A stretch of 64,000 bases of DNA, taken from the NCBI RefSeq assembly GCF_015645465.1, contig NZ_JADOEL010000021.1:1-64000 (forward strand), in the 5' to 3' direction. Of this stretch, positions 31,935 through 48,260 are shown piece after piece. How positions within the stretch are numbered: position 1 is the first letter of the stretch; each line of letters opens with the position of its first letter. The notes under the pieces were generated by a model that saw nothing but the letters and a program-made list of their open reading frames with translations, was not told the DNA's origin and searched no databases. Made by a program: the position numbers and the translations under genes. The DNA is from Herminiimonas contaminans. Lineage in GTDB: Bacteria; Pseudomonadota; Gammaproteobacteria; Burkholderiales; Burkholderiaceae_D.

Positions 31935-31967
31935 AAAAAAGCGAGGTACATCCAAGTACCTCGCTTT
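31935..31967 (-). terminator. Terminator after the carrier/small-subunit operon
   Basis: GCGAGGTAC (31941-31949) pairs perfectly with GTACCTCGC (31956-31964). On the minus strand a T6 run (A-tract 31935-31940) follows. It separates the carrier operon from the two-component operon, which therefore has its own promoter. Confidence 0.85.
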
Positions 31968-31985
31968 GGCCGGATGCGATGGAAT

Positions 31986-32120: not shown

Positions 32121-32148
32121 ATCTTTCTCCTGGTCATGTATCGCAAGC

Positions 32149-33552: not shown

Positions 33553-33662
33553 GTAAATCTCCTCATTTGATCTTGTTCGCAACATCGCTGTGTTGCGAGG
33601 CGTTTTTGACGGCGCTCATGCATCGTCTGCGGTGAAGCTTCTTCACCAGGCCCGGATCTATA

Positions 33663-33779: not shown

Positions 33780-33877
33780 CGCTTTAACTAGAAATGATGA
33801 CTACTCTCAAAACTGCCATGCCTGCGCTCAATCTGTGGCAAATCATCATCAAATCCGGTTAATTTATCGTTAAATCA

Positions 33878-33900
33878 TTATGTCGTTTAAATGCATAACG
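33878..33900 (+). promoter_or_regulatory. Mo-regulon-like element before the first TonB receptor
   Basis: A 23-bp stretch matches the element before modE (46584-46606) at 18 of 23 positions. The left ten bases, TTATGTCGTT, are identical. A further TCGTTAAAT lies just upstream. It is 91 bases before the receptor start. Confidence 0.5.
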
Positions 33901-33991
33901 TATATACTCTCGCTTTTTAAAAATAGGTCGTTATTCCTGAACAGCTACAACGTGGCCGTCAGCGAGGCCATAAAATAGTAGAGGGAGTAAG

Positions 33992-36031
33992 ATGAAATAC
34001 CCGTTGTCCCGTACCACCATCGCAGCGTCCTTGCTGCTGGCGTTCGGTAGCAGCTTCGCTGCAGAGCCAGCCAATGAATCCAATATTTTCACGCTCGGTG
34101 AAATCAATGTTGCCGGAACTGGCACAACACCACCTGCAGTAGGCGGTGCCAAAGTCACGCGCGAAGAACTGGATGATTTCAACCGTGAAACCGTGGTTGA
34201 TGCACTCGACCTGCTGCCTGGCATCACCACCACCGGCGGTGGCCAGCGCAATGAACGCATGGTGACGGTACGTGGCTTTGACAGCCGCCAGGTACCGGTA
34301 TTCATCGATGGTATTCCGGTCTACGTTCCATATGACGGCAACGTTGATCTGGCGAGATTCACAACTTATGACTTGGCTTCAATCGAAGTAGCGAAAGGCT
34401 TTAGTTCGGTCTTGTATGGTCCCAACACCATTGGTGGTGCGATCAATCTGGTAACACGTCGTCCAGTAAAAGCATTCGAAGGCAATATTGGTGTAGGCGT
34501 ACGCAGCAATGACAAATTCGATGGCAATGGCAAAAGTACCAATGTCAATCTCGGAACCAATCAGGGCACTTGGTACGCCCAACTTGGTTTGTCCTATCTG
34601 GATCGGGATGGCTATACCTTGTCGCGCGATTTCCGCCCTGTAGCTTCACAGCCTAAAGGTGACCGACTCAATGCCTACAATACCGATAAAAAAATCAATA
34701 TGAAGGTCGGCTGGACGCCAAATGCGACTGATGAATATGCATTGAACTACGTGAACCAAAAGGGTGAAAAAGGTAGCCCTCCGTACGCTGGTTCAGCCAT
34801 CAATAAAGCAAATGGCAAACCGGTTACGCCTAATTACTGGCAATGGCCGGCATGGGATAAGGAAAGCTTGTATTTCATCTCCAATACCGCACTCAGCAGC
34901 AACTCCTATATCAAAACGCGTTTGTACTACGACAAATTTACGAACCGCCTAACTTCATTTGATGATGCGACTTATACAACCGTAACCAAATCGAAAAAGT
35001 ACCCTTTCCGTAGCTTCTATGACGACTATACCTACGGTGGTAACGTCGAGTACGGCACCAAACTGTCCGATGTAAATACACTGAAAGTTGCTTTGCATGT
35101 TAAACAGGACGTGCACAGAGAACACGATGAAGGTGATCCGGAACAACGTTCTGAAGACCGCACTACATCTTTTAGCGTTGAGGATACGCACAAGCTCACG
35201 AACAAGCTGGATTTGATCGTAGGTGCCAGCTATGACAAGCGTCAGGAAAAGCAGGGGCAAAAATACAATTCCGGCGTCATGACGAATTTCCCTGTCAAGG
35301 ATTCCTCGGCCTTCAATCCACAGGCAGGTTTGATTTATCACACATCGGAAACCGGCAATGCGTACCTGACCGTCGCACGCAAGTCACGCTTCCCGACTAT
35401 CAAACAACGCTATTCCGCAGGCTTGGGTACTGCAGTGCCTAACCCGAATTTGAATGTCGAACGTTCCATCAACTATCAGTTGGGTATTTCGGAAAAATTG
35501 ACATCAAAAGTTCGAGTAGATGCTGCGATTTTTTATAACGACATCACCGACATGATGCAAAACGTCCAATTGGGCATAATTTGTCCTAGTGGAAATCCTT
35601 GCAATCAAATGCAAAACATCGGCAAAGTGTCTAGCAAGGGGATTGAACTCGGCCTTACTGCAGCTGTCACCAATACGCTTGAATTGGGTGGTAACTACAC
35701 ATACCTCGACCGGAAAAACAAAAGCGATGCGAAGCTGCTAACCGACGCTCCTGCACACAAGTTGTTTGCCTATGCCAAATGGGCTGCGACCCCAAGCATG
35801 AACGTCATCGGTAGCGCAGAGTACAACTCCAAACGCTACAGCAACAGTGACGATGCAAGCCGTTATGCAGCGGGTTTTAGCCTGGTCAACGCCAAGTTAA
35901 GCTATACCTTGCAGAAAGACGTAACCCTTGAAGCAGGCGTCAACAATCTGCTGGATCGTAACTACGCGTATTCCGAGGGCTACTACGAGGAAGGCCGTAA
36001 TTTCTTCGCTAACATGAACTACCGTTTCTAA
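33992..36031 (+). CDS. TonB-dependent outer-membrane receptor
   Basis: This 679-residue protein has a signal peptide (about residues 1-23, ending SSFA). The plug domain has VDALDLLPGITTTGGGQRNERMVTVRGFDSRQVPVFIDGIPV and SVLYGPNTIGGAINLVTRRP. A 22-strand barrel ends in the terminal-Phe signature NMNYRF. It is the first gene of a tight operon with a periplasmic binding protein and a di-heme oxidoreductase. The upstream element resembles that of modE, so the cargo may be an oxyanion complex; siderophore or cobalamin-type cargo cannot be excluded. Confidence 0.9.
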   Translation: MKYPLSRTTIAASLLLAFGSSFAAEPANESNIFTLGEINVAGTGTTPPAVGGAKVTREELDDFNRETVVDALDLLPGITTTGGGQRNERMVTVRGFDSRQVPVFIDGIPVYVPYDGNVDLARFTTYDLASIEVAKGFSSVLYGPNTIGGAINLVTRRPVKAFEGNIGVGVRSNDKFDGNGKSTNVNLGTNQGTWYAQLGLSYLDRDGYTLSRDFRPVASQPKGDRLNAYNTDKKINMKVGWTPNATDEYALNYVNQKGEKGSPPYAGSAINKANGKPVTPNYWQWPAWDKESLYFISNTALSSNSYIKTRLYYDKFTNRLTSFDDATYTTVTKSKKYPFRSFYDDYTYGGNVEYGTKLSDVNTLKVALHVKQDVHREHDEGDPEQRSEDRTTSFSVEDTHKLTNKLDLIVGASYDKRQEKQGQKYNSGVMTNFPVKDSSAFNPQAGLIYHTSETGNAYLTVARKSRFPTIKQRYSAGLGTAVPNPNLNVERSINYQLGISEKLTSKVRVDAAIFYNDITDMMQNVQLGIICPSGNPCNQMQNIGKVSSKGIELGLTAAVTNTLELGGNYTYLDRKNKSDAKLLTDAPAHKLFAYAKWAATPSMNVIGSAEYNSKRYSNSDDASRYAAGFSLVNAKLSYTLQKDVTLEAGVNNLLDRNYAYSEGYYEEGRNFFANMNYRF

Positions 36032-36041
36032 GAGTTTCACT

Positions 36042-37376
36042 ATGCTACGTACACCATTTTTTCTCGGTAAGCTGTTCGCTACTGCGCTCTTCAGCTTCGT
36101 CTCTGTCATCGCTTTGGCGGCAGACAAGCCTGCGGGCAAGGTCGTGGTCATGACCAGTTATCCGGAAGAAGTGGTGTCGCGTTTCGAAGCTGCTTTTGAA
36201 AAAGCGCATCCCGGTACGCGCGTCGAAATACTCTGGCGCCGTTCCGGAGATGCCTTGTCTTACTTACGCAAACCGAATCAAGGCAATGTCGATGTCTACT
36301 GGACACCGGCACAACGCAATTTTCAAATCCTCGCCCAAGAGGGTGCATTCCGGCGCCCTGATCTGGATATGACGGGTCTGCCTGCCAAAGTCGGCGGCTT
36401 TCCTATCTCCGATCCTGCCGGTTTCTATCTCGCCAGCGAAATTGCGGGCTATGGCCTGGCGATCAATCCACAACGCCTGCAAGACAAAAAATTAGTACAA
36501 CCCCGACAATGGACAGACCTGACCGCTCCCGAGTGGCAAGACGAAATCGTTTTCCCGGTGCCGGGCAAGGTAGGCTTCGCACCGATACTGATAGACATCA
36601 TCCTGCAAGGTCATGGCTGGGATAAAGGCTGGGCGCTGCTGCAGGCTATCGGTAGCAACGCGAAACTATTGGGTCAGGGTGGAGCCAATATTTCTGATGA
36701 CGTACGTAACGGCCAGGCCAGTGTCGGCGTTTCCATCGACTTCTTCATCAAATCAGCGATCGCGAATGGCGCGCCGCTGCAATTTATCTACCCCGGCATT
36801 ACCGGTTATTCGCCAGCACATGTAGGCATCATGAAAGGCGCACCGAACCCGGAAGCAGCGCGCGCATTTGCTACCTTCGTTTTGTCGGATGAAGGGCAAA
36901 AAATCTTGTTCCATCACGACACCCGTAAACTGCCGGTGCGTCCCGCAGTCTATGCGAACAAACCAGCTGGCTACTACGATCCGTTCGAAGCAGCCAAGGC
37001 CATGCCGTTTGTGTTTGATACCACGCACGCACTCGCGCGTCAGGGCTTGAACAACACTTTGTACGACGTATTGATCAGCAATGAACATGCGCGCCTGCGT
37101 CAGACCAATGACAAAGTCATGCAGGCTGAACGTGCTGCCAACACCGCTGCCTTGAAAGCAAAAGCGGCGCAAGCGCGCAACCTGCTCGATGCGGTGCCAG
37201 TAAGCGAAGCGGAAGCCGACAAACTCGCGCCGCAATTTGTGTTTGCCTTCGATGAAACCACAGACACACATCGCAACGACGCCATCACCGCACAATGGAC
37301 GGCACGCATACGGCAAAACCGTGACCGCGCAGAGCAACTGGCGCAAGAAGTATTGAACACCGCAGGTACAAAGTGA
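36042..37376 (+). CDS. Periplasmic solute-binding protein (family 1 type) with long C-terminal tail
   Basis: This 444-residue protein has a signal peptide cleaved near ALAA. The core (about 30-340) resembles Fe(III)/thiamine/phosphonate-type ABC binding proteins: VVVMTSYPEEVVSRFEAAFEKAHPG, NVDVYWTP, and the hinge PGITGYSPAHVGIMKGAPNPEAA. A further about 100 residues (Ala/Lys-rich helix AANTAALKAKAAQARNLL) are unusual. No permease or ATPase gene follows. It starts ten bases after the receptor and overlaps the next gene by four bases (GTGA), so all three should be made together. Confidence 0.8.
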   Translation: MLRTPFFLGKLFATALFSFVSVIALAADKPAGKVVVMTSYPEEVVSRFEAAFEKAHPGTRVEILWRRSGDALSYLRKPNQGNVDVYWTPAQRNFQILAQEGAFRRPDLDMTGLPAKVGGFPISDPAGFYLASEIAGYGLAINPQRLQDKKLVQPRQWTDLTAPEWQDEIVFPVPGKVGFAPILIDIILQGHGWDKGWALLQAIGSNAKLLGQGGANISDDVRNGQASVGVSIDFFIKSAIANGAPLQFIYPGITGYSPAHVGIMKGAPNPEAARAFATFVLSDEGQKILFHHDTRKLPVRPAVYANKPAGYYDPFEAAKAMPFVFDTTHALARQGLNNTLYDVLISNEHARLRQTNDKVMQAERAANTAALKAKAAQARNLLDAVPVSEAEADKLAPQFVFAFDETTDTHRNDAITAQWTARIRQNRDRAEQLAQEVLNTAGTK

Positions 37377-38746
37377 AACTTGGGCGTCTTGTTGGCTACC
37401 TCGGTATCTTGCCGCTAGCCTTTCTGTTAAGCGGCGCGGCCAGCGTAGATCCGAAAGCATTGAGCGGCGGCACTGCCACCGTGTTTGATGACAGCCGTGA
37501 AGCATACTCGCTACCGAGTCCGGTCATGGACCCGGACAATGTCGCCGCATTCGCACAAGGCCGTAGCCTGTTCCGTCAGTCCTGGGTCATCGCTCCGGCG
37601 AATGACAGGGCGGCCGGGCTCGGCCCGCTGTACAACCGTATTTCCTGCATCGCCTGTCATGCCAAGAACGGTCGTGGCGGCGCGCCGGATGGTCCCGACG
37701 GCACCATGCAGGCGATGCTCTTGCGCCTCAGCATACCCGGCGCCAATCCGCATGGTGGCCCGAAACCACATCCGGCCTATGGCGACCAACTGAATGAACG
37801 CGGTGTGCCTGGCGTACCGGGTGAGGGTATAGGCTTTCTGATCTATGACGAGCATGTGGAAACACTGCCTGACGGCACCAAAGTAACGCTGCGCAAACCC
37901 AATGTGCATTTCAAGGAAATGGCTTACGGCGCACTCGGCTCAGACATCATGGTGTCACCACGCGTAGGCCCGGTCGTGTACGGCCTGGGGCTGCTGGAAG
38001 CAATCAGCGACGACACCATATTGGCCATGGCCAAACAAACCAAACCGGATGGTATCGCAGGGCGCGTGAATATCGTGTGGGACGCGATGGCGCAGAAAGA
38101 GGCAATAGGCCGCTTCGGCATGAAAGCAAATGTCGCGACATTGACCGAACAAATCGCCAATGCGTTCTCCGGCGATCTCGGCATTACTTCGCCATTGATG
38201 CCGCATGAGAATTGCACCAAGGTACAAACTGCATGTCAGCGTGCTCCGTCCGGTGGCGAACCCGAACTGACACGTGCAGAGTTATATGCGACGGTGTTTT
38301 ATCAACGCATGTTGGCAGTCCCGGCACGCCGCGATGTGAATGACAAACAAGTCATACACGGCAACCGCTTGTTTGTGCAGGCACGCTGCATAGCCTGTCA
38401 TGTCGCGCCTTTGCGTACGCGCCCGGATGCTGCGTTACCTGCATTATCAAATCAGTTGATACGGCCTTACACCGATTTGCTGCTGCACGATATGGGGCAG
38501 GGCCTGGCCGATGGCCGCAGTGACTACCTGGCGAATGGCAGGGAATGGCGTACGCCACCACTGTGGGGCATAGGCCTGACGCACAAGGTCAATCCAGATG
38601 CTGGTTATCTGCACGACGGCCGCGCCCGTACCTTGCTGGAAGCCATCATGTGGCACGGTGGTGAAGGCAATTATTCGAAGGAAGCAGTCCGTGCGATGTC
38701 GACCGAAGATCGTACTGCCTTGTTGCGTTTCCTGGAATCACTGTGA
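37373..38746 (+). CDS. Di-heme oxidoreductase (c-type cytochrome)
   Basis: This 457-residue protein has an N-terminal signal (GYLGILPLAFLLSGAAS) and two CIACH heme-c sites, one near residue 98 and one near 340. This is the layout of the DHOR/thiol-oxidoreductase-like family, related to bacterial di-heme peroxidases. It also has DAGYLHDGRARTLLEAIMWHGGEG near the end, typical of this family. It is periplasmic and translationally coupled to the binding protein. It may change the redox state of whatever the receptor and binding protein carry; this is inference. Confidence 0.85.
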   Translation: MKLGRLVGYLGILPLAFLLSGAASVDPKALSGGTATVFDDSREAYSLPSPVMDPDNVAAFAQGRSLFRQSWVIAPANDRAAGLGPLYNRISCIACHAKNGRGGAPDGPDGTMQAMLLRLSIPGANPHGGPKPHPAYGDQLNERGVPGVPGEGIGFLIYDEHVETLPDGTKVTLRKPNVHFKEMAYGALGSDIMVSPRVGPVVYGLGLLEAISDDTILAMAKQTKPDGIAGRVNIVWDAMAQKEAIGRFGMKANVATLTEQIANAFSGDLGITSPLMPHENCTKVQTACQRAPSGGEPELTRAELYATVFYQRMLAVPARRDVNDKQVIHGNRLFVQARCIACHVAPLRTRPDAALPALSNQLIRPYTDLLLHDMGQGLADGRSDYLANGREWRTPPLWGIGLTHKVNPDAGYLHDGRARTLLEAIMWHGGEGNYSKEAVRAMSTEDRTALLRFLESL

Positions 38747-38821
38747 GATAAAAATCCTGCTTCCACTATGCGCGCCGACATGTGACACTGTGCACATCAA
38801 CGCATAAATGGAAGAATCATC

Positions 38822-39019
38822 ATGGCCAAGAAAGAAGAACTCGATCCGGAAACACTCGCACTGATCAACTGGTGCATAGAAGTAGAGGGATTCCTGGTTG
38901 CCGGTGGCGCCACCGTAGCAGAAGCACAAGATCATATCGAAGAACAAATCGAATGGTTCACCGACTTGTTCTATGACGGTTTAACGCCTGAAGAAGCGGC
39001 GAAGGAAGCATTGGCCTGA
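38822..39019 (+). CDS. Small acidic protein of unknown function
   Basis: This 65-residue acidic, helical protein (KKEELDPETLALINWCIEVEGF; AEAQDHIEEQIEWF; LTPEEAAKEALA) has no signal peptide. Its single ATG (38822) has GGAAGAATC before it. It follows the di-heme gene by 75 bases and ends just before a terminator, so it is probably the last gene of the receptor operon. Not recognised as a family. Confidence 0.65.
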   Translation: MAKKEELDPETLALINWCIEVEGFLVAGGATVAEAQDHIEEQIEWFTDLFYDGLTPEEAAKEALA

Positions 39020-39035
39020 AGTCTGTGTAACTCAG

Positions 39036-39073
39036 AAAAAAGCGCGCTCTGTTTAATCAGGCGCGCTTTTTTG
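39036..39073. terminator. Bidirectional terminator between convergent operons
   Basis: AGCGCGC (39041-39047) pairs with GCGCGCT (39061-39067). An A-run lies on the left and a T6 on the right, serving both the small acidic gene and the convergent ModA-like gene. Confidence 0.85.
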
Positions 39074-39085
39074 TTGGCCGGAGGT

Positions 39086-39919
39086 TTAGTTTCCGGCGGT
39101 AGTCACAGGCGTAAAGCCATATTGCGCAATTAATTTCTGCGCTTGTGGACTCATGAGGAAAAGTGCAAAGCGATACGCTGCCTCATGTGATTTCTTGTCA
39201 CGGGTGACGACAGTCAAACCATAGTCTGACGTGACGGCCAGGCCCGCTGGCAATGGCACACTAGTGAACTTGGGGTCTGGCGTTGTTTGACGCGAACTGC
39301 AATAGCCGAGTGAAATATGCACCTTCTTGCGAGCAAAGAAGTATTCCATCGCATTCACACCGGCTGGCACCGGTGGATTGTTTTTGCCGCCGACCAGTTG
39401 CTGTGCCTTGGCTTCCAGGATGGCCTGCGCACCGGGTCGGAGTTTCTCAGCGCGAGCAAATACCTGCCATGCATAGTCGCCACCCGGATCTGCTTTCGGC
39501 GTCGAAGTGCCGAGACCGACCTTGGGATCAAGCAAACGATCCAGTACGTTGTCCGTCGTCAGACCTGACTCCGGCAAGGCCTTCGCACATAGCTGGTTAC
39601 GTAGCATTACCACCGGTTGCGTGGCCCAGCCTCGATCTGCCAGTGCTTGCGGATGTTCCATATTGGCCGACGCAAAGATGTCGGTTTGCTCACCGTTCTC
39701 TATGCGTTCACGCAACAGACCGGCAGGGCCGAATTGCGCATCTATCTTTTGTCCGGTCTGCTGCGTGTAGAGTTGCGCTACCGCCGTCATCGCACCGGTC
39801 AGGCTACCTGCCGCCAGTACTTTAACCGGTGGCTGTGTCTGAGCCGCAGTGTCTGCCCAGGCAGCGCTGCTTAGCAATGCCACCGACCACGCGAAATAGG
39901 AAGAGTTTATTTTCATCAT
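39086..39919 (-). CDS. ModA-like molybdate/tungstate-type periplasmic binding protein (orphan)
   Basis: This 277-residue protein has a signal peptide (ending AAWA). The ModA-type core has VKVLAAGSLTGAMTAVAQLY, with the oxyanion-binding Ser in AAGSL. FGPAGLLRERIENGEQTDIFASANMEHP follows, and later VTSDYGLTVVTRD. It differs from the modA of the transport operon (47505-48260), and no permease or ATPase gene accompanies it. It lies 17 bases downstream of a TonB receptor gene, so it probably takes a molybdate-like anion from that receptor. Confidence 0.85.
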   Translation of the reverse strand: MMKINSSYFAWSVALLSSAAWADTAAQTQPPVKVLAAGSLTGAMTAVAQLYTQQTGQKIDAQFGPAGLLRERIENGEQTDIFASANMEHPQALADRGWATQPVVMLRNQLCAKALPESGLTTDNVLDRLLDPKVGLGTSTPKADPGGDYAWQVFARAEKLRPGAQAILEAKAQQLVGGKNNPPVPAGVNAMEYFFARKKVHISLGYCSSRQTTPDPKFTSVPLPAGLAVTSDYGLTVVTRDKKSHEAAYRFALFLMSPQAQKLIAQYGFTPVTTAGN

Positions 39920-39936
39920 GTTCCGCTTTCAGGAAA

Positions 39937-42057
39937 TCAGAAATCCATTTGCATCGATGCGCGTATGGTGCGTGGCGCACCCAGCGTGCCTGTACCTGCA
40001 CCAGTACCTGTATAGCCGTTCTGTCCGCTCGGTGTGATGTTGGCCCAGTAGAGCTCGTCGGTGACATTGTTGATGGCAAGGCGCCAGGTGGTCGGACGTC
40101 CCATCAGCAGGGTCGAGTAACGTGCGCCCAGATCAGCAACGGTGTAACCATCTACCTTGTAGGAGTTGGTGCTGTCGCCCTGACGGCTGCCCGCGTGGCT
40201 GACGTTCAGGTTAACAGCGAGACCCGGCACAGCGGCGATGCGATAGTCGAGCAGGATGTTGCTGACGATGCGCGACAAGCCCATGATTTGTTTACCCGCG
40301 GTCGTTGCGCTGGCGGTGTTTAGCAAACGTGGATCAAGGTAGGTAAGACCACCATACATGGTGAGGTTGCGTGTCAATGCACCATTTGCCGTCAGCTCCA
40401 GGCCACGGTTGCGCTGATCGCCCTGTACCGCAAACACGCCATTCTGCACGTAAGCAAACGGACGTTCGATCTGGAACAAGGCTGCACCGACATTAACTTT
40501 TTCAAATGCGTGTTTGTAACCCAGTTCCCATTGCTTGCTGCGGTAAGGAGCTGTTGTGCTTGTGCCCGAGGTCTCGCCTTGCTGCAGGCTGTCGGCATAA
40601 GATGCGTAGACCGTCGTATTCTTTTGCGGCTTGTATGACACAGTCGCATTGCTGCTGAGGCCGCTATCGTTGTAGTACTTGCCCGGTGCTATTGAACCAT
40701 TCGGATTGTTGCCGCTTTGGTCTATCCAGCTTTTACTGAGGTACAAACCTGCTGACCATTGCTCGTTGAATCCTACCGTGTCGCCAACCGTAATCGCCTG
40801 TTGGCGCGTGGTTTGTGCCTTGTAGCGATTCTTGAAGTTGGGAATGTTGCCCGGCTGATTGAAGACGGTCGGATTGTTTAAATTTGAGGTACCCAAGCCA
40901 ATTGCGCCAGTTGTGTATGGCGAGTATCTGTCCCATTCAAAGCCCGTAGTCGACACTACGATATCGTGTGTCATGCCTGCCGCATTCACACGACCATTCA
41001 ATGCCAGGTTATAGCTAAGGATTTCATCCAGGCTAAAAGTCGTCGTCGCTACTTTGACGCTGTATGCCCCCGCATTGTTGGTCAGGGTATTGGTCGGTAC
41101 TGTCGACGCACGGTCGCTGCTTTGTTTCAGGATGCCCGCTGTGACGTTCCAGTTTTGATTCAGCCTGTGCTTAAGACGTGCACTATAGGTTTCAGTCACA
41201 TTGTCATCACCTGCAAATGGCTGGCCGTAGCCTACTCGTTTCGGATCAGGCGCGGCCGGGTACGCCACACCCGTACCCAGCTCAAATGTTCCTGGCAAGC
41301 CTTTGCTGGTGTAGTGATAACGGCTGATATTTGTTTCCAGCTTGGTGTCGCTGGTGAGCTGCACGTCAAACGCCAGGCTCGCCAGTTTGCGATCCAGCTT
41401 GCTGCGATCGACATAGCTTTCACCGCCTTCATCCAACAAGTTGACGCGGAAGCCGAAACGCTTATCTTCACCAAAGCGATCACTAATGTCCGCGCTCACC
41501 GAGCCCGAACCCCGGCTGGCATAACCAAGCGAGAAGCGACGCAAAGGTGTTTCGGTAGGGCGCTTCAATACATAGTTGAAAGTGCCGGCCGGGCTTGCTG
41601 GGCCATACAAGGCACCGGCCAAACCATTCAATACTTCTATACGGTCAAACTGTTCGATCGGGTAGTCGGTAGTGGCCGCGATGTTCATGCCATCTATGCG
41701 CGTGTTCTGTACTACGCCTGCCTGCAAGCCGCGCGTCTGCGGCCGTATGTTTTCGCCTTGCACGGAAGGCATGTAGCGGAAAGCTTCGCGCACGCTTTTC
41801 AGTTGCTGGTTTTCCAGCAGTTCGGCTGGTACGACATTGATTGCGTACGGTGTGTCCAGCACACTTTTCTCGCCGAGCGGGCCCATGCTCGCCGTTTCCG
41901 GTTTGTACGCAGGGGCACCGGTGCCGATGACATCGACAGTATCAAGTACGGCGGCTTTATCCGCAGCGTAAGCAGGCAGGCTCGCAATAGCGAGCGCCAA
42001 TACCGTCATACCCGAGGCATGACGGGAAAGTGTAGGTTTGTTTTTCAGGGTTTTCAT
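39937..42057 (-). CDS. TonB-dependent outer-membrane receptor
   Basis: This 706-residue protein has a signal peptide (MTVLALAIASLPAYAADK region). A plug has TVDVIGTGAP (TonB-box region), ESVREA-type SVREAFRYMPSVQGENI and PEGTF-like SPAGTFNYVLKRP. The barrel ends in ASMQMDF with terminal Phe. This branch resembles siderophore/FhuE-like receptors. The frame extends nine codons to a GTG; ATG 42057 fits the signal peptide. The next gene is the orphan ModA-like protein, and the divergent neighbour is a ModE-type regulator. Confidence 0.9.
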   Translation of the reverse strand: MKTLKNKPTLSRHASGMTVLALAIASLPAYAADKAAVLDTVDVIGTGAPAYKPETASMGPLGEKSVLDTPYAINVVPAELLENQQLKSVREAFRYMPSVQGENIRPQTRGLQAGVVQNTRIDGMNIAATTDYPIEQFDRIEVLNGLAGALYGPASPAGTFNYVLKRPTETPLRRFSLGYASRGSGSVSADISDRFGEDKRFGFRVNLLDEGGESYVDRSKLDRKLASLAFDVQLTSDTKLETNISRYHYTSKGLPGTFELGTGVAYPAAPDPKRVGYGQPFAGDDNVTETYSARLKHRLNQNWNVTAGILKQSSDRASTVPTNTLTNNAGAYSVKVATTTFSLDEILSYNLALNGRVNAAGMTHDIVVSTTGFEWDRYSPYTTGAIGLGTSNLNNPTVFNQPGNIPNFKNRYKAQTTRQQAITVGDTVGFNEQWSAGLYLSKSWIDQSGNNPNGSIAPGKYYNDSGLSSNATVSYKPQKNTTVYASYADSLQQGETSGTSTTAPYRSKQWELGYKHAFEKVNVGAALFQIERPFAYVQNGVFAVQGDQRNRGLELTANGALTRNLTMYGGLTYLDPRLLNTASATTAGKQIMGLSRIVSNILLDYRIAAVPGLAVNLNVSHAGSRQGDSTNSYKVDGYTVADLGARYSTLLMGRPTTWRLAINNVTDELYWANITPSGQNGYTGTGAGTGTLGAPRTIRASMQMDF

Positions 42058-42171
42058 AGTAATCAAAAGAGGGCGGCGTAGCACGGTGTTGCCGCACGAG
42101 GAGACCTGGTACTGCGGATCTGATACTGCTCAATGTCGGGGAGACATCGGCATCCGGCGCCAGATTCTAAT

Positions 42172-42194
42172 CGATATAACTTTTAACTACATAA
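42172..42194 (-). promoter_or_regulatory. Mo-regulon-like element in the receptor/regulator divergent region
   Basis: Read on the minus strand, this 23-bp stretch matches the element before modE at 22 of 23 positions; a C becomes A at position 7. It contains TTAAAAGTTATATCG. It lies 115 bases before the receptor start and 145 bases before the divergent regulator. Confidence 0.7.
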
Positions 42195-42338
42195 TGAAAA
42201 TACGTATGTCGTTGTATTTTTGTTGATATGACGCTGCACGGACTCGCTGGGAAACTGACAAAATCATGCGCATGATTGGTATATTTCAAGCAAATCTGGG
42301 CGAAAATACGCCCATTCAGTAAAAGTCCAAGCCAAGCC

Positions 42339-42755
42339 ATGCCTAAAAGCCAGACTAAAAAATCCCAGGTCCCGCAGCCACGCGTACGTGTGTTGATGGG
42401 GGAATTGACCGCGATGGGCCCAGGTCGCGCCGACCTGATCGATGCGATAGAACGTACCGGTTCCATTTCGGCTGCAGGCCGCGAGATGAATATGTCCTAC
42501 CGCCGTGCATGGACATTGGTGGAAACCACCAATGCATCCTTCATCGAACCACTGGTGGTGACCAGTACCGGTGGCAGCGGTGGTGGTGGTGCACTGGTCA
42601 CAGACTTCGGCCGCGGTGTGGTTGAGCGCTATCGCGCGATGGAACGCAAGGCATCGAAAGCCATCAGCAGCGACTTCGCCGTATTCAGCAAACTCTTATC
42701 CACCACTCCGCCGCCGGCAAGCAAAGCCAAGACCAGCAAGACGCCGCAAAAGTAA
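42339..42755 (+). CDS. ModE-type regulator lacking the sensor domain
   Basis: This 138-residue protein carries the winged-helix LysR/ModE DNA-binding domain: LIDAIERTGSISAAGREMNMSYRRAW, then the wing with STGGSGGGGALVTDFGRGVVERYR. After it comes only a Ser/Lys/Pro tail; the TOBE (MOP) molybdate-sensing domains of full ModE are absent. It is divergent from the TonB receptor and ModA-like pair and probably controls them. The start ATG 42339 fits the family; the frame opens 21 codons earlier. Confidence 0.85.
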   Translation: MPKSQTKKSQVPQPRVRVLMGELTAMGPGRADLIDAIERTGSISAAGREMNMSYRRAWTLVETTNASFIEPLVVTSTGGSGGGGALVTDFGRGVVERYRAMERKASKAISSDFAVFSKLLSTTPPPASKAKTSKTPQK

Positions 42756-42766
42756 GCCCGGCACCC

Positions 42767-42807
42767 ATCTGTAGCGATAGGATCAACCTATCGCTACAGA
42801 TATTTTC
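42767..42807 (+). terminator. Terminator after the ModE-type regulator
   Basis: A perfect 15-bp stem (ATCTGTAGCGATAGG and its complement) with loop ATCAA, followed by ATTTTCCTT. Confidence 0.85.
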
Positions 42808-42904
42808 CTTAACAAAAAATTGATACAACCCTCCTGTATTTCGGCTAATCTTTGCTTACGAAACGCAAGGAAACACTGATAAATACTTGCGTTAGGTAGT
42901 ACAA

Positions 42905-42928
42905 CGCTATATTCTTACGGATATAGCG
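42905..42928. promoter_or_regulatory. Palindrome resembling a ModE box
   Basis: CGCTATAT (42905-42912) and ATATAGCG (42921-42928) are perfect inverted arms 8 bases apart. This closely follows the classical ModE operator pattern of CGCTATATA-type half-sites. It lies between the regulator's terminator and the unknown gene at 43104. Confidence 0.5.
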
Positions 42929-43013
42929 AAATCGGTTTAACCCGCGCACTGCGAAATACATACCCTTCCGGCACAATTTTCCACGCTGATAACCGAACGC
43001 GTTATTAATCCCT

Positions 43014-43063
43014 GTCACCGACTTTGCATCGCACGATGCTGATGCAATAGAACCGTCGGTGAC
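43014..43063. other. Strong nested stem-loop in a probable 5' leader
   Basis: Outer arms GTCACCGAC (43014-43022) and GTCGGTGAC (43055-43063). Inside them TGCATC pairs with GATGCA, and GCATCG/CGATGC can form an alternative inner hairpin. It lies 40 bases before the next gene and could be a regulatory leader. The rest of 42808-43103 shows no convincing gene. Confidence 0.45.
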
Positions 43064-43103
43064 TTTGTGTATATCCAGTTGAATCATTAACAGGACAAAC
43101 ATC

Positions 43104-43382
43104 GTGGCTTTACTTGAGTACAAAGGGTACGTTATTTCGGTAACGGCAACCGAACAGACATGGGGCTTCTCATTCGGTGAATGGGGCGGGACATATCGCG
43201 TCTGGCATAAGGAAAACCTGACACCGATAGAAGGTGTAATCGAAGGATGCGAAACCTCTGCGTTTGAAGCAGAGCAGCGCACCTTGCGCATCGTCAAGGT
43301 TGCGATCGATGAAGCAACCTCGAAAACCAGCGAACAGTTAATGCAGTCGCTCAGCCAATTGGGCGAACGCTTCGCGATGTAA
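43104..43382 (+). CDS. Hypothetical protein
   Basis: This 92-residue soluble protein starts at GTG after AGGA. The N half is beta-rich and aromatic (YKGYVISVTATEQTWGFSFGEWGGTYRVW) and the C half helical. No family recognised. The ModE-like palindrome and stem-loop upstream hint at Mo-linked regulation, which is speculative. Confidence 0.6.
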   Translation: MALLEYKGYVISVTATEQTWGFSFGEWGGTYRVWHKENLTPIEGVIEGCETSAFEAEQRTLRIVKVAIDEATSKTSEQLMQSLSQLGERFAM

Positions 43383-43461
43383 GCACACCCTGTATTGCAT
43401 CCATCCTTTCAACTGATCTGATGCCTGCACCTGTGACATCAGATCAGCGACACACTCCCGC

Positions 43462-43971
43462 TTACCAATACTTCGGATACTTATTCTTGCGTACGACGTT
43501 GTTGTAGAACATCGCAACCAACACCAGTATGCAAGCACCTATCAGTGTCGGGAAGATCAAAAAATTCCATCCTGGCATACCGAGGAAAACAATCACCGGA
43601 TTAGAACCTGCCGGCGGATGTACGACACGGAACGCCATCATCACGATGATGGCAGTCGCCACCGCCAAACCCAGCGCCCACCAGTGCGGACCAAACACAT
43701 ACAAATAAAACAGACCTGACAAACTGCTCAGGAAATGTCCGGCGATGACATTGCGCGGTTGTGCCAATGGCGTGTCGGGTAAAGCAAAAACAATGACGCA
43801 CGATGCACCGAACGATCCGAGTATCAGGATCGCCTGCGTATAGTCTGCCGCCAGTGCAATGACACTGATGGCGATGAAGCCGCCGAGGCCGGACAACATG
43901 ACGTTGCCGAATGTGGGTTGTGGTGGCAGCGACATACTGCTGCTAAAAAATTTCTTGATGGGATTGGACAT
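43462..43971 (-). CDS. HPP-family membrane protein
   Basis: This 169-residue inner-membrane protein has four helices and the name-giving motif HPPAGSNPVIVFLG. A basic N-terminus (SNPIKKFFSSSM) precedes the first helix. HPP proteins are of uncertain function; some act in nitrite transport in chloroplasts. The start ATG 43971 follows AGGA; the frame opens 11 codons earlier. Separated from the formate dehydrogenase gene upstream by two terminators. Confidence 0.85.
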   Translation of the reverse strand: MSNPIKKFFSSSMSLPPQPTFGNVMLSGLGGFIAISVIALAADYTQAILILGSFGASCVIVFALPDTPLAQPRNVIAGHFLSSLSGLFYLYVFGPHWWALGLAVATAIIVMMAFRVVHPPAGSNPVIVFLGMPGWNFLIFPTLIGACILVLVAMFYNNVVRKNKYPKYW

Positions 43972-44025
43972 GAAAGATCCTGGCGAGTAGATGTCTGCAG
44001 ACAAAGCAGCAGAAGCATCTCGAAT

Positions 44026-44101
44026 AAAAAAATGCCGACGTCATTACTGCACGTCGGCACTCAGTAAAAATAGTCAGCCACCAGATCCGGTCATCCGGTG
44101 G
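44026..44101 (-). terminator. Tandem terminators after NAD formate dehydrogenase
   Basis: Two hairpins on the minus strand: AGCCACCGGA/TCTGGTGGCT (44074-44101) and TGCCGACGT/ACGTCGGCA (44033-44059), the second followed by T7. Confidence 0.85.
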
Positions 44102-44118
44102 CTTACCGTTTCGTCGAA

Positions 44119-45321
44119 TTACGCTACTTTAAATTTCGCAGCTTCTTCCGAACCTTTGGTTGCGTTACCGTCACTGTAGGAGTGAGCGCCGACGCCTGCC
44201 AGTTTGCCGCCTTGAACGATGAGGTATTCGTCACGGATAGGGCGACCTTCAAAGTAGCATTCCAGGATTTCGCGGGTACCTGCTGCGTAACGGGTTTGTG
44301 CCGTCAGGCTGGTGCCGGAAATGTGTGGTGTCATGCCGTGGTGCGGCATGGTGCGCCATGGATGGTCTTTTGGTGCTGGTTGTGGGAACCAGACGTCGCC
44401 AGCGTAACCAGCCAGTTGACCGCTCTTCAATGCTGCAACAATCGCGTCGCGATCGCACAGTTTGCCGCGTGCGGTGTTGATGATGTACGAACCACGCTTG
44501 AAGTTTTTCAAGGTTTTTTCGTTGATCATGTGTTCTGTTTCTGGGTGCAGCGGGCAGTTCAGCGTCACAACGTCACAGACTTTGGTCAGGCTGTCGAGTG
44601 TGCTGTGGTAGGTCAGGTTCAGTTCTTTTTCAACTGCTTCTGGCAGACGGTGGCGATCCATGTAGTGCAGTTTGACGTCGAATGGTTTCAACAGGCGCAG
44701 TACGCGCAGACCGATACGACCAGCAGCAACCGTACCCACGCTCATTGCTTCCAGATCGTAGGAACGTTCTACGCAGTCAGCAATGTTCCAGCCGCCGTTG
44801 ATCACCTGGTTGTACGAAGGGATGTAGTTACGTACTTGCGACAGGATCATCATGACGACGTGTTCTGCAACGCTATGGCTGTTGCAATAGGTCACTTCGG
44901 CAACGGTGATGTTGTGCTTGTTCGCTGCTTCCAGGTCGGTGTGATCGGAACCGATACCAGCTGTCACGATCATTTTCAGTTTCTTGGCTTTAGCGATGCG
45001 TTCTGCTGTCATATATGCAGGCCAGAATGGTTGCGAGATGATGATCTCTGCATCGTGCAATTCTTTGTCGAGGACGCTGTCTGCGCCGTCTTTGCTGGAA
45101 GTAACAACCAGGGTGTGGCCGTTCGATTCCAGGTATTTACGCAGGCCCAGTTCACCGGATACGCTACCGAGCAGTGTGCCTGGTTTGAAATCGATACCTT
45201 TAGGTGTCGGCAGTGTTTGGCCGTCTGGGTAGATCGATGGTTGCGCTACGTCATCACGTGCGTAGGTTTTAGGATAACCGTTGACTGGATCATCATACAA
45301 AACACATAAAACTTTTGCCAT
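44119..45321 (-). CDS. fdh: NAD-dependent formate dehydrogenase (metal-independent)
   Basis: This 400-residue enzyme oxidises formate to CO2 with NAD+. It belongs to the 2-hydroxyacid dehydrogenase fold and closely resembles the Pseudomonas sp. 101 enzyme. Substrate residues are visible: QPFWPAY, the Asn in TYCNSHSVAEH, Arg in NTARGKLCDRD, Gln in WFPQPAPKDHPW and His in PHISGT. The cofactor loop is AAGRIG, and Asp in YMDRHRLP favours NAD over NADP. It needs no molybdenum, unlike fdsGBACD nearby. ATG 45321 follows GGAGA. A LysR gene lies upstream in the same direction. Confidence 0.96.
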   Translation of the reverse strand: MAKVLCVLYDDPVNGYPKTYARDDVAQPSIYPDGQTLPTPKGIDFKPGTLLGSVSGELGLRKYLESNGHTLVVTSSKDGADSVLDKELHDAEIIISQPFWPAYMTAERIAKAKKLKMIVTAGIGSDHTDLEAANKHNITVAEVTYCNSHSVAEHVVMMILSQVRNYIPSYNQVINGGWNIADCVERSYDLEAMSVGTVAAGRIGLRVLRLLKPFDVKLHYMDRHRLPEAVEKELNLTYHSTLDSLTKVCDVVTLNCPLHPETEHMINEKTLKNFKRGSYIINTARGKLCDRDAIVAALKSGQLAGYAGDVWFPQPAPKDHPWRTMPHHGMTPHISGTSLTAQTRYAAGTREILECYFEGRPIRDEYLIVQGGKLAGVGAHSYSDGNATKGSEEAAKFKVA

Positions 45322-45470
45322 GTTACTTCTCCATAAGATTGGTTGCATAAAATTGCTGGCTACACCGAATCGAAAATTGCTGGCGGTAGCTGAATTCTCT
45401 TTTTCTTCTGCACACGGACATCAAGATGTATGTCCAGCGCAGCCATCTTATGGAGTAAGTTTTTTACGGT

Positions 45471-46409
45471 CTAATCGTTTGATGTGATGGGCTGATAGCC
45501 TCCGCTTATGTATGCATCAAATTGCGCTTGCAGATTAATCTGTTCGGCTATGCTGCGCGCTGCCACCACGATAGGCGAACAGGGTTCGTGGTCGAGTGAG
45601 ATCAAGCCAATCGAACGACTCAATTCAGGCACGATAGGGATCGCCATCATGCCGTCACGCAATTCAAACAGGTAGAGCAAGCTATGCGGCACCACGCTAA
45701 ATAAATCCGCGTGACGAACATGGGAATACAAGGCAAACACCGAATCCGTTTCCACCACCACATTCGGATGCACCTCGGCGCGACGAAATGCCGCATCGAC
45801 GATGCGACGATTTTGCATATGTGAAGTGAGCAGACATAGCGGCAGCTCTGATGCTTCTTCCCAGCTCACATCTTCTTTCCCGTCCGGCATGCTGCCGCTA
45901 CGTGCCAGCAACATATAGCGTTCACGATATAGAGGCTGCACATGGAAACCATTGAGTCGCTGGTCTTCCAGATAAGTCAGGCCGACATCCAGTTCAAAGT
46001 CGTCCAGCCTGCGCATGATTTCTTCGGTACTTAAAGAAAGCACCAGTTGCCGCAAGTCCGCATGCTGGGCACGGCAACGACCGGTCAGCAAGGAAACAAT
46101 AGGCATCGTGGTCGGGATTGCTCCCAGGCGTAACGTGCCACTCAGCTTGACGCGCGACATCGATGCCTCCTGCTTCAGGCCTTCCAGTGCCGCCAGCGTC
46201 TGCCGCGCCCAGTCCAGGATGCGCTCACCTTCCGGCGTAAAGCCCTGGAAACGCTGGCCGCGCTGCACGATGGCTATGCCCAGTTCGGTTTCCAGATTCC
46301 GCACTGCCGCTGACAGCGCCGGTTGCGAGACACAACAAATTTCAGCTGCGCGGGCGAAGTGTTTTTCCCGGGCAAGGGTGACGAGGTAATCGAGCTGACG
46401 TACAAACAT
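45471..46409 (-). CDS. LysR-family transcriptional regulator
   Basis: This 312-residue protein has an N-terminal winged HTH (QLDYLVTLAREKHFARAAEICCVSQPALSAAVRNLE) and a C-terminal co-inducer domain (LSGTLRLGAIPTTMPIVSLL). Its stop is 149 bases before the start of the NAD formate dehydrogenase gene in the same orientation, so it probably controls it; formate as inducer is a guess. It is divergent from modE. Confidence 0.88.
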   Translation of the reverse strand: MFVRQLDYLVTLAREKHFARAAEICCVSQPALSAAVRNLETELGIAIVQRGQRFQGFTPEGERILDWARQTLAALEGLKQEASMSRVKLSGTLRLGAIPTTMPIVSLLTGRCRAQHADLRQLVLSLSTEEIMRRLDDFELDVGLTYLEDQRLNGFHVQPLYRERYMLLARSGSMPDGKEDVSWEEASELPLCLLTSHMQNRRIVDAAFRRAEVHPNVVVETDSVFALYSHVRHADLFSVVPHSLLYLFELRDGMMAIPIVPELSRSIGLISLDHEPCSPIVVAARSIAEQINLQAQFDAYISGGYQPITSND

Positions 46410-46583
46410 CGGGATAACCTGTAGAAAAGAGGTGGCAGGACATACGGGGGAGGGAATGCAGGACCTGCTTCATCTTATCCGCTTATGCGCGATTTTCCGG
46501 AATGCCCCTGCTGCCAAAGTGCCCAATAGACCAACGGAGTTCACGATACACAAATAGAATGGCAATACTTCACCCTGTTCTCG

Positions 46584-46606
46584 TTATGTCGTTAAAAGTT
46601 ATATCG
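46584..46606 (+). promoter_or_regulatory. Mo-regulon-like element before modE
   Basis: A 23-bp stretch containing two direct nonamers, GTTATGTCG (46583) and GTTATATCG (46598), 15 bases apart. It is almost identical to 42172-42194 before the TonB receptor/ModE-like pair. It lies 74 bases before modE, where ModE autoregulation is expected. Confidence 0.65.
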
Positions 46607-46679
46607 TGTATAGTATCAACTTTTAGAGCGACTTTTGCTGAACAGCCCTTCATCATTTTTTAAAAAGATATCGACTGTT

Positions 46680-47474
46680 ATGAGCAAGACAACTTCGCCC
46701 ATCAAACTGGAAGGTCTGTCCAAATCGCGCGGCAAGCGCTGGGATCATTTGGAGCTGCTGGAGCGTATCGATGCTTCGGGCTCCATTTCCGCTGCCGCAA
46801 GCGCCATGGGCATGAGTTACAAAGCCGCCTGGCAAGCCGTCGAATCGGTGAACAACCTGTCGCACGAACCGCTGGTCATACGCCAGCCGGGTGGCAGCAC
46901 CGGTGGCGGCACTTGCCTGACCGAGTATGGCAGGCGTGTGGTTGCCACCTATCGCCGCCTCGAGCAGGAGTGGGCAGCAGTACCGGCGGCTATAGGCCGC
47001 ACCATGGACGATTTTGATCAGTACTACACAATGAGCAGGAGATTCGATATGCAAACCAGCGCACGCAACCAGTTCCTCGGCACCGTCAGTGCCGTCAAGA
47101 AGGGCGCGGTCAATGCGGAAGTCATACTCGATATCGGCAATGGTGCCCAACTGGCAGCCATTATCACCAATGACAGCGCAGATCACCTGGCGCTGGAAGT
47201 CGGCTCTGAAGCTTATGCGCTGGTGAAAGCGCAATGGATCATCCTCACTGTAGAAACTAATTTCAAAACCAGTGCACGCAATTCCCTGACCGGCACCGTG
47301 GTCCGTTGCCAGGAAGGTGCAGTCAATGCAGAAGTCGTGATCGAACTGCCGGGCGGTAAAACCGTGGCATCGATCATCACCAATGAAAGCGTGAAGACAC
47401 TCGGTTTAAAAGAAGGTGTACGTGCCACAGCCATGATCAAGGCATCGCACATCATTCTGGCGGTGCCCGCCTAA
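46680..47474 (+). CDS. modE: Molybdate-responsive transcriptional regulator ModE
   Basis: This 264-residue protein has the ModE N-terminal winged HTH (LLERIDASGSISAAASAMGMSYKAAWQAVE; wing PGGSTGGGTCLTEYGRRVV). Two TOBE/MOP molybdate-binding repeats follow, SARNQFLGTVSAVKKGAVNAEV and SARNSLTGTVVRCQEGAVNAEV. Full length for the family. It leads the modE-modA-modB-modC series. The frame opens earlier at TTG 46635; ATG 46680 fits the family length. Confidence 0.95.
   Translation: MSKTTSPIKLEGLSKSRGKRWDHLELLERIDASGSISAAASAMGMSYKAAWQAVESVNNLSHEPLVIRQPGGSTGGGTCLTEYGRRVVATYRRLEQEWAAVPAAIGRTMDDFDQYYTMSRRFDMQTSARNQFLGTVSAVKKGAVNAEVILDIGNGAQLAAIITNDSADHLALEVGSEAYALVKAQWIILTVETNFKTSARNSLTGTVVRCQEGAVNAEVVIELPGGKTVASIITNESVKTLGLKEGVRATAMIKASHIILAVPA

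Positions 47475-47486: not shown

Positions 47487-48260
<774 letters not shown>

What the first reader, a model, noticed from the sequence alone, without database searches (positions are those of the whole stretch)
33878..46606. One 23-bp element before modE and both TonB receptor clusters
Copies at 46584-46606 and 42172-42194 (minus strand) share 22 of 23 bases; the copy at 33878-33900 shares 18. This directly ties two outer-membrane receptors to the molybdate operon and supports TonB-dependent oxyanion uptake, which is poorly documented.
Basis: partly seen in the sequence, partly recalled or inferred. Interest (0 to 1): 0.8.

Follow-up and report, generated by a model that had tools for sequence, protein, structure and literature searches.

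The report
ModE-controlled TonB receptors for molybdenum uptake
A DNA switch of the kind read by the molybdenum sensor ModE sits before two outer-membrane receptors as well as the molybdate transporter, and relatives of both receptors in other bacteria, among them an E. coli receptor filed under iron, carry the same switch, which suggests active molybdenum import through the outer membrane.

Summary
The repeat is real: a 25-bp palindrome at 46582-46606, 42172-42196(-) and 33876-33900. A pattern fitted to it finds only these three in the 4.04-Mb genome at up to 3 mismatches. It resembles the E. coli ModE operator (7-bp instead of 6-bp spacing), and a -10-like hexamer starts 2 bp after each copy. 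Receptor 1 (33992-36031): all 6 sampled genus relatives with it carry the site. In named genomes 32 of 78 homologues have a box of 13 or more of 16, against 7 of 617 control promoters, and 46 of 78 have modE or modABC nearby. Homologues occur in Proteobacteria, Bacteroidota and Verrucomicrobiota. One, PrrA of E. coli by gene order (2102 of 5426 genomes), ends an operon with modD behind a 15/16 box, though print proposes iron. Receptor 2 (39937-42057), of another receptor branch, pairs with a ModA-type protein; of six distant homologues four have boxes of 14 to 16, one 12, one none. Best reading: two receptor families, repressed by ModE, import molybdenum or tungsten. ModE binding, transport and the form of the substrate are untested. 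I found no such report in the held library, which lacks most subscription papers.

The parts
46582..46606 (+). ModE-type operator before modE-modA-modB-modC, 74 bp before ATG 46680
46609..46614 (+). -10-like hexamer TATAGT, 2 nt after the operator
42172..42196 (-). ModE-type operator before receptor 2, 115 bp before ATG 42057
   Evidence: same site in G001
42164..42169 (-). -10-like hexamer TAGAAT, 2 nt after the operator
33876..33900 (+). ModE-type operator before receptor 1, 92 bp before ATG 33992
   Evidence: site in 6 of 6 sampled genus relatives with receptor 1
33903..33908 (+). -10-like hexamer TATACT, 2 nt after the operator
42905..42928 (.). fourth candidate ModE box, 24 bp with E. coli spacing, 14/16, before a 92-aa ORF
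33992..36031 (+). receptor 1: TonB-dependent receptor (Plug and barrel), PrrA-like family
36042..37376 (+). solute-binding protein (SBP_bac_6/PhnS2-like), second gene of the receptor-1 operon
37373..38746 (+). di-haem oxidoreductase (DHOR), third gene of the receptor-1 operon
39937..42057 (-). receptor 2: TonB-dependent siderophore-type receptor (ORF opens at GTG 42084; ATG 42057 taken as start)
39086..39919 (-). ModA-type solute-binding protein downstream of receptor 2
   Evidence: (TIGR01256 77.1 bits, cut-off 62.5)
42339..42755 (+). HTH-only ModE paralogue, divergent from receptor 2
   Evidence: no Pfam or NCBIfam match at the limits used
43104..43382 (+). conserved 92-aa ORF without Pfam match, behind the fourth box
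46680..47474 (+). modE (HTH and two Mop/TOBE domains; ORF opens at TTG 46635)
47505..48260 (+). modA
48272..48946 (+). modB
48862..50019 (+). modC (longest ORF; true start probably further in)
   Evidence: ORF behind modB, conserved among relatives; not scanned against a family library

Best explanation
The element is a ModE operator that covers the -35/spacer region of three promoters. In a molybdenum-replete cell a ModE-family protein should bind there and shut off modEABC, receptor 1 with its SBP and di-haem oxidoreductase, and receptor 2 with its ModA-type protein. Both receptors belong to families, from separate branches of the TonB receptors, that serve molybdenum acquisition: the receptor brings molybdate, tungstate or a molybdenum complex across the outer membrane with TonB energy, a periplasmic binding protein takes it over, for receptor 1 a di-haem redox protein may help to release it, and ModBC (or in relatives a FecCD-type ABC transporter) completes import. 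Shown: sequence, position, conservation and gene company of the sites. Inferred: ModE binding, repression, transport, substrate. My odds: 0.9 for ModE-family control of receptor 1, 0.85 for receptor 2, 0.75 for molybdenum/tungsten uptake.
For: Three sites only in the genome for the fitted pattern. A PWM built only from genus modE-promoter sites finds a site directly before receptor 1 in 6 of 6 sampled relatives that have it (scores 23.0, 24.3, 19.1, 19.4, 21.7, 9.1) and before receptor 2 in G001 (27.8). In 20 of the 20 genus sites listed TANNNT starts 2 nt after the box (read from the listing; G004's modE site and a site on G005 contig 2 were not listed). Distant receptor-1 homologues: 5 of 6 carry boxes of 13 to 16 of 16; 27 control TonB receptors reach at most 11. 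Named genomes: 32 of 78 against 7 of 617 control promoters at 13 or more (Fisher p 4.6e-27). 40 of 78 loci hold a ModE HTH gene, 46 of 78 that or at least two of modABC. Flavobacterium: a variant palindrome at the receptor in 24 of 24 loci, modE or modABC near in 21 of 24. Class sample: 6 of 274 genomes have receptor 1 (the window's own included), all 6 with a ModE HTH at E<1e-20; 50 of 274 have one at E<2e-18 (counted from the table). E. coli: operon SBP, FecCD permease, ATPase, methyltransferase, ModD, receptor, with a 15/16 box 25 bp before the first gene. The scoring finds a 14/16 site 20 bp before K-12 modA; five K-12 loci without mod genes reach at most 11 (that this modA site is the proven operator is recalled). 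Pseudomonas plasmid: receptor beside a molybdopterin-dependent oxidoreductase, moaA and nar, 14/16 box. Receptor 2: G067 16/16 before the operon, two Pantoea 14, Chimaeribacter 15, Methylocystis 12; ModA-type partner in Methylocystis and Polymorphobacter, the latter also with the divergent HTH-only ModE gene.
Against: No binding, expression or uptake data. The window's own boxes score only 12, 12 and 11 of 16 against the E. coli consensus; 19 of 617 control promoters reach 12 or more and 104 reach 11 or more. 11 of 54 non-Flavobacterium receptor-1 loci had neither a box of 13 or more in the stretch scored nor mod genes; on a second look six of them do have a 14 to 16 box at or up to about 480 bp before the receptor, five (L112, L134, L141, L151, L160) have none above 11. 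Of the five other receptor-1 genomes of the class sample two have a 14/16 box and three none above 11; G095 has none in its 15-kb contig. Polymorphobacter has no box of 12 or more before receptor 2 (11 at best). The nearest solved receptors import siderophores, copper or B12; the receptor-1 SBP looks most like sugar-phosphate and Fe3+ SBPs; in Pantoea sp. At-9b the receptor-2 homologue stands next to the iron genes efeU and efeO; print proposes iron for the prrA cluster. Relaxed patterns (1 mismatch) in the genome give no more hits than their controls. A class sample of 369 genomes has receptor 2 at E<=1e-100 only in the window's genome.
Confidence: 0.75

Rival explanations
1. The receptors take up molybdenum bound to an organic chelator (a catecholate 'molybdophore' or borrowed siderophore), not the naked oxyanion; the di-haem protein helps to free the metal in the periplasm.
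For: By profile receptor 1 is nearest to the catecholate receptor CirA and receptor 2 passes the TonB-siderophore model. FecCD- or Peripla_BP_2-type ABC genes accompany the receptors in E. coli, G067 and, as annotated, Paracoccus. A di-haem protein of one of two families follows receptor 1 in many loci: DHOR in 29 of 54 non-Flavobacterium loci, CCP_MauG in 3 of 4 Bacteroidota loci scanned.
Against: I noticed no chelator biosynthesis genes beside the loci read, but did not search for them. ModA-type proteins, whose solved relatives bind molybdate, are companions in the window, Methylophaga, Methylocystis and Polymorphobacter. Foldseek ranks OprC, a copper importer, about as high as siderophore receptors.
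Confidence: 0.4
2. They are iron (siderophore) receptors that happen to lie in the ModE regulon.
For: Homology to iron receptors; prrA cluster 'proposed to be involved in iron uptake' in PMC1890555; efeU and efeO next to one receptor-2 homologue.
Against: ModE boxes, and mod, moa, modD and nar genes as neighbours, in several phyla. Receptor 1 misses the siderophore model's cut-off (181 against 223.5 bits). Fur boxes were not looked for.
Confidence: 0.12
3. The true regulator is the HTH-only ModE paralogue, not full ModE, so the signal may not be molybdate binding to ModE.
For: HTH-only ModE genes lie beside receptor 2 in the window and in Polymorphobacter, and beside many Bacteroidota receptors.
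Against: The site also fronts the full modE operon. In the four genus genomes fetched that have the paralogue but not receptor 2, no site of this kind stands before it (best consensus score 10).
Confidence: 0.25
4. The receptor-1 operon is a molybdenum-independent substitute for a molybdoenzyme (the di-haem protein) and its nutrient, switched on when molybdenum is scarce.
For: DHOR gene in 29 of 54 non-Flavobacterium loci.
Against: In E. coli and on the Pseudomonas plasmid the receptor sits with modD or molybdenum-cofactor genes and no di-haem gene in the stretch read; in Bacteroidota it sits with modE or modABC, with another kind of di-haem protein or none.
Confidence: 0.1
5. The similarity is chance or a dispersed repeat.
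For: None found.
Against: Shuffles, genome scan and conservation.
Confidence: 0.01

Closest known systems
ModE operator / ModE regulon (E. coli modABC)
   Same: Palindrome of the type CGNTATATA-N6-TATATANCG at a mod promoter, with a modE gene in the genome.
   Different: The window genus uses 7-bp spacing and TATGT halves; the regulon includes TonB receptors, which I did not find described for ModE in the held library.
PrrA (prrA-modD-yc73-fepC cluster of E. coli)
   Same: The E. coli receptor beside modD and ymgE groups with receptor 1 (36% identity) and has a ModE box before its operon. The name PrrA rests on gene order and position as described in PMC1890555 (passages), not on a comparison with the CFT073 sequence.
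   Different: Partnered with a FecCD-type ABC transporter and ModD instead of SBP and DHOR; described in print as proposed for iron uptake.
MolBCA molybdate/tungstate importer of Haemophilus influenzae
   Same: Type II ABC importer for molybdate (passages, PMC4031551). The SBPs of the E. coli, Paracoccus and G067 operons match HI_1472 among solved structures, ranks 2, 3 and 6; that HI_1472 is MolA is recalled.
   Different: Inner-membrane system; the passages read do not mention TonB.
OprC, CirA, FepA, BtuB type TonB receptors
   Same: Plug and barrel fold.
   Different: Separate branches of the tree from receptor 1; K-12 annotations give Fe-catecholate, enterobactin and cobalamin as cargo.
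ModA-IcmP-H2-T6SS molybdate route of Pseudomonas aeruginosa
   Same: A proposed active route for molybdenum at the outer membrane (passages, PMC9769707).
   Different: Rests on secreted ModA and IcmP, not on a ModE-controlled TonB receptor operon.
Methanobactin import (MbnT with MbnP/MbnH)
   Same: TonB receptor coded with a periplasmic partner and a di-haem protein; this comparison is recalled (one search gave a listing only).
   Different: Copper and a peptide chelator; homology was not tested.

Membership tests
ModE operator | Match to ATCGNTATATA-N6-TATATANCGAT | tested here: met
   Only loosely by the window's own sites: 12, 12 and 11 of 16 with N7 spacing, a level that 104 of 617 controls reach (11 or more). 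Clearly by distant homologues: 13-16 with N6 in many. K-12 modA site: 14
ModE operator | Lies at a mod promoter, with a modE gene in the genome | tested here: met
ModE operator | Bound by ModE in response to molybdate | not testable with these tools
   needs gel shift or ChIP
ModE regulator (window 46680-47474) | ModE-type HTH plus two Mop/TOBE domains | tested here: met
   TIGR00638 160 bits (cut-off 55), PF03459 two stretches; but the HTH model TIGR00637 gives 88.7 bits (cut-off 98.5) and NF007957 181 (cut-off 369)
TonB-dependent receptor | Plug domain and beta-barrel | tested here: met
   PF07715 and PF00593 for both receptors; fold of receptor 1
TonB-dependent receptor | Energised by TonB | not testable with these tools
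   needs a tonB mutant
TonB siderophore receptor (TIGR01783), receptor 1 | Score above curated cut-off 223.5 | tested here: not met
   181 bits
TonB siderophore receptor (TIGR01783), receptor 2 | Score above curated cut-off 223.5 | tested here: met
   269.5 bits; the model's name is not a tested function
PrrA-like clade | Groups with the E. coli receptor apart from other TonB receptors | tested here: met
   receptor 1: 100/100 support, 21 rows against 10; receptor 2 lies outside
ModA (window 39086-39919) | TIGR01256 above cut-off 62.5 | tested here: met
   77.1 bits; the narrower PRK03537 models are below their own cut-offs
Molybdenum transporter | Transport of molybdate, tungstate or a molybdenum complex | not testable with these tools
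   inferred from regulation and gene company only

The most novel reading that the evidence does not exclude
Two unrelated branches of TonB-dependent receptors, one found in at least three phyla and in about 39% of complete E. coli genomes, are dedicated importers of the naked molybdate/tungstate oxyanion under ModE repression. Then molybdate would not merely diffuse through porins, as one review puts it, and PrrA would be a molybdenum, not an iron, receptor.
Probability: 0.35. Interest if true: 0.9.

Novelty: new variant of a known kind. Interest (0 to 1): 0.8.

Why it matters
[quoted passage not shown] Conserved ModE-controlled receptors would mean that many bacteria spend TonB energy on molybdenum, would add an oxyanion-forming metal to the list of TonB cargo, and would reassign the PrrA-type cluster, whose receptor gene is in 2102 of 5426 complete E. 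coli genomes, from iron to molybdenum. It is directly testable with reporter and metal-uptake assays.

Tried and rejected
Chance or dispersed repeat: rejected. Relaxed palindromes at 1 mismatch over the genome: 35 hit rows against 48 in the control for the 25-mer, 43 against 47 for the 24-mer, so uninformative except for exact hits. One search used a pattern one base too long by my mistake and is not used. HTH-only ModE as owner of the receptor-2 box: in the four fetched genus genomes with that gene but without receptor 2 (G002, G008, G011, G012) no such site stands before it. That receptor 2 is an isolated case: I first thought so, because I scored only the stretch before the receptor in G067, where it is not the first gene; a scan of the whole stretch shows a 16/16 box 32 bp before the first gene. 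Structure searches of the SBP and receptor 1 gave only broad family matches. Rfam found nothing in the window; PADLOC nothing for receptor 1. One search was translated in a wrong frame and one search found no loci; both were redone.

Rows dropped before counts and parts not looked at: of 80 named loci, L106 and L116 (no receptor ORF found), and also L115; one search scored 77. The search for related loci kept the best 80 of 475 loci. Receptor-1 homologues on plasmids: 5 of 23 records read; receptor-2 homologues: 5 of 17 read. E. coli promoters: three records read. The 27 control TonB receptors are weaker hits of the receptor-2 search, a one-sided choice; K-12 receptors were added. The Flavobacterium motif was taken from the loci in which it was then counted. 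The stretch scored starts at the longest ORF, which in at least four loci lies beyond the true start, so boxes were missed; the control promoters were not given a second look of that kind, so those extra boxes are not in the 32 of 78.
Full report
OBSERVATION. Their common unit is a 25-bp palindrome, CGTTATGTCGTTAAAAGTTATATCG before modE. With up to 3 mismatches the fitted pattern occurs three times in the 4.04-Mb genome and not at all read backwards. The pattern was fitted to the copies, so one search shows rarity, not function. In 100 relatives it gives 20 hits in the 13 genus genomes (2 control hits) but 4 against 19 outside the genus.

WHAT IT IS. PMC545781 quotes the E. coli ModE consensus as ATCGNTATATA-N6-TATATANCGAT (passages). 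The window sites have similar half-sites with 7 bp between them and score 12 (modE), 12 (receptor 2) and 11 (receptor 1) of 16. On its own that is weak: 19 of 617 control promoters reach 12 or more and 104 reach 11 or more. The case rests on position, conservation and relatives. In the 20 genus sites listed a TANNNT hexamer starts exactly 2 nt after the box, so the box covers the -35/spacer region, as expected for a repressor; these sites are related by descent, not independent, and no control was run for the hexamer.

GENUS. Of 13 genus genomes sampled (G000 to G012), 7 have receptor 1. A PWM trained only on modE-promoter sites, the window's own included, finds a site just before receptor 1 in the 6 relatives that have it (23.0, 24.3, 19.1, 19.4, 21.7, 9.1). 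There the SBP and DHOR genes follow receptor 1, within 25 kb of the mod genes. Receptor 2 is found at high identity only in G001 (83%), again with a site (27.8). The four fetched genomes with the HTH-only ModE gene but without receptor 2 have no such site before that gene, so the site goes with receptor 2.

RECEPTOR 1 BEYOND THE GENUS. Of six distant homologues (36 to 50% identical) five have boxes of 13, 14, 14, 15 and 16 of 16 with E. coli spacing, one (G095) has none; 27 control TonB receptors reach at most 11. In the named-genome scan (best 80 of 475 loci) 78 loci had a usable receptor ORF. 32 of 78 have a box of 13 or more against 7 of 617 control promoters (Fisher p 4.6e-27). A repeat with a stricter choice of controls left three at 13 or more (total not printed): two stand between a divergent neighbour and the receptor, the third precedes another plug-domain gene in front of an SBP-DHOR pair. 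By genus-level group 18 of 33 have such a box and 17 of 33 a modE or modABC neighbour. 40 of 78 loci hold a ModE HTH gene and 46 of 78 that or at least two of modABC. Eleven of 54 non-Flavobacterium loci showed neither; in six of these a 14 to 16 box does stand by the receptor, missed because the ORF start was set too early (L090, L096, L143, L162) or because it lies about 480 bp upstream (L105, L113), while five have none above 11. In the class sample all six genomes with receptor 1 have a strong ModE gene; for the five others the hypergeometric p is 1.6e-4, but only two of those five show a box of 13 or more.

BACTEROIDOTA. All 24 Flavobacterium loci scored carry a palindrome CAGTATTCATTTTAAAACATACTG or a near copy at the receptor, mostly about 40 bp before the start (in two loci the ORF start seems set too early). 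In six of them the same site precedes a further gene of 851 to 853 aa, in the one scanned a TonB receptor (L107). modE or modABC lies near in 21 of 24. Of four Bacteroidota loci scanned, the gene after the receptor is a di-haem CCP_MauG protein in three (L107, L118, L124); an Oxidored_molyb protein follows in L107 and L118 and directly in L157, where the receptor lies among MoeA, MobA-like and ModE genes.

OTHER COMPANIES OF RECEPTOR 1. Five of 23 plasmid records were read. In E. coli the receptor closes an operon of Peripla_BP_2 SBP, FecCD permease, ATPase, methyltransferase and ModD; a 15/16 box stands 25 bp before the first gene. The receptor gene matches in 2102 of 5426 complete E. coli genomes and its promoter stretch in 2098; a diverged promoter still has a 16/16 box. 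K-12 lacks the operon at the treA-ymgE site. PMC1890555 (passages) describes the same cluster beside ymgE in O157 as homologous to prrA-modD-yc73-fepC, proposed to be involved in iron uptake. On a P. aeruginosa plasmid the receptor lies beside a molybdopterin-dependent oxidoreductase, moaA and narIJH with the alpha subunit, with a 14/16 box 15 bp before it. Azospirillum has a 15/16 box before SBP-DHOR-receptor; Methylorubrum a 14/16 box 72 bp before the receptor and another elsewhere in the stretch; Paracoccus 12/16, with an equal score elsewhere. The scoring finds a 14/16 site before K-12 modA as best in its 7-kb stretch; five K-12 loci without mod genes reach 11.

RECEPTOR 2 BEYOND THE GENUS. 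It is rare: in a class sample of 369 genomes only the window's own has it at E<=1e-100. In G067 (41%) the homologue is in an operon with FecCD permease, ATPase and Peripla_BP_2 SBP, and a perfect 16/16 box stands 32 bp before the first gene. Of 17 plasmid records five were read: Pantoea sp. At-9b has two 14/16 boxes, P. agglomerans one 14/16, Chimaeribacter two 15/16, each within about 160 bp of the receptor; Methylocystis 12/16 with N7 spacing; Polymorphobacter at best 11. Methylocystis and Polymorphobacter have a ModA-type protein after the receptor (45 and 51% identical to the window's), Polymorphobacter also a divergent HTH-only ModE gene (44%), the window's own arrangement. In Pantoea sp. 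At-9b efeU and efeO follow, an iron company.

FAMILY AND FOLD. Receptor 1, its homologues and the E. coli receptor form one group apart from K-12 CirA, FepA, BtuB and PqqU, receptor 2 and five other receptors (100/100, 21 rows against 10). A wider quick tree agrees, with long-branch warnings. Receptor 1 misses the curated siderophore-receptor cut-off; receptor 2 meets it. The AlphaFold model of receptor 1 (pLDDT 86) is a normal TonB receptor, with OprC, PirA and CirA near the top of the list. The receptor-1 SBP model (pLDDT 90) is nearest to sugar-phosphate and ferric-binding SBPs, so it does not by itself point to molybdate. The ModA-type protein next to receptor 2 passes the ModA model, and a relative of it follows SBP and DHOR in three Methylophaga loci.

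MECHANISM. Most likely ModE represses when molybdenum is plentiful; in scarcity receptors, binding proteins and redox protein appear together with ModABC, and molybdenum is pulled through the outer membrane. The role of the di-haem protein (release of the metal from a ligand, or redox change) is a guess. Whether free oxyanion or complex is carried is open.

NOVELTY. Searches of the held library for ModE, molybdate or molybdenum with TonB, outer membrane, molybdophore or ModD, and for 'ModE regulon' (lists capped at 12 to 30 where more papers matched) showed no paper that I could recognise as reporting a ModE-controlled TonB receptor. I judged by title and start of abstract, and read passages in eight papers: PMC545781, PMC5343134, PMC11734730, PMC9769707, PMC8264917, PMC1890555, PMC4031551 and PMC2700814. 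The last predicts a ModE regulon in Geobacter sulfurreducens with 'several transport systems'; its main text does not contain TonB, and its table was not seen. Studholme and Pau 2003 is not held, nor is RegPrecise, so an earlier prediction may exist.

Noticed in passing
window 42905-42928 and 43104-43382: Fourth ModE-type palindrome (14/16) 175 bp before a conserved 92-aa ORF with no Pfam match; boxes of 12 to 13 precede it in 4 of 6 related loci. The 351-nt stretch 42760-43110 folds well below its shuffles (z -7.2), partly through a terminator-like hairpin; no Rfam hit.
   Followed up: partly
L177 (own genome, contig 35, 1-6297): Two divergent HTH-only ModE genes, a nitrate-reductase-associated gene, and an exact match to the relaxed operator pattern at 3600-3624 before a 274-aa ORF without Pfam match.
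   Followed up: partly
window 28399-33585 and L196 102-5275: Sensor kinase, sigma-54 regulator and OFA-like MFS transporter next to receptor 1; a like trio stands beside the receptor-1 homologue on Methylorubrum plasmid pCMU01.
   Followed up: no
window 50030-57187: HTH plus PBP_like regulator beside modC, then formate dehydrogenase genes with FdhD.
   Followed up: no
L084 6440-6464: Palindrome of the operator type in G005, about 1.4 kb from a TonB receptor gene with only 24% identity to receptor 1.
   Followed up: no
L107 6082-8643: A second TonB receptor (853 aa) in Flavobacterium behind the same operator as the receptor-1 homologue, outside its group in the tree.
   Followed up: partly
L093 3112-8214: A second plug-domain gene with a 14/16 box in front of another SBP-DHOR pair, just upstream of the receptor-1 operon.
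   Followed up: partly
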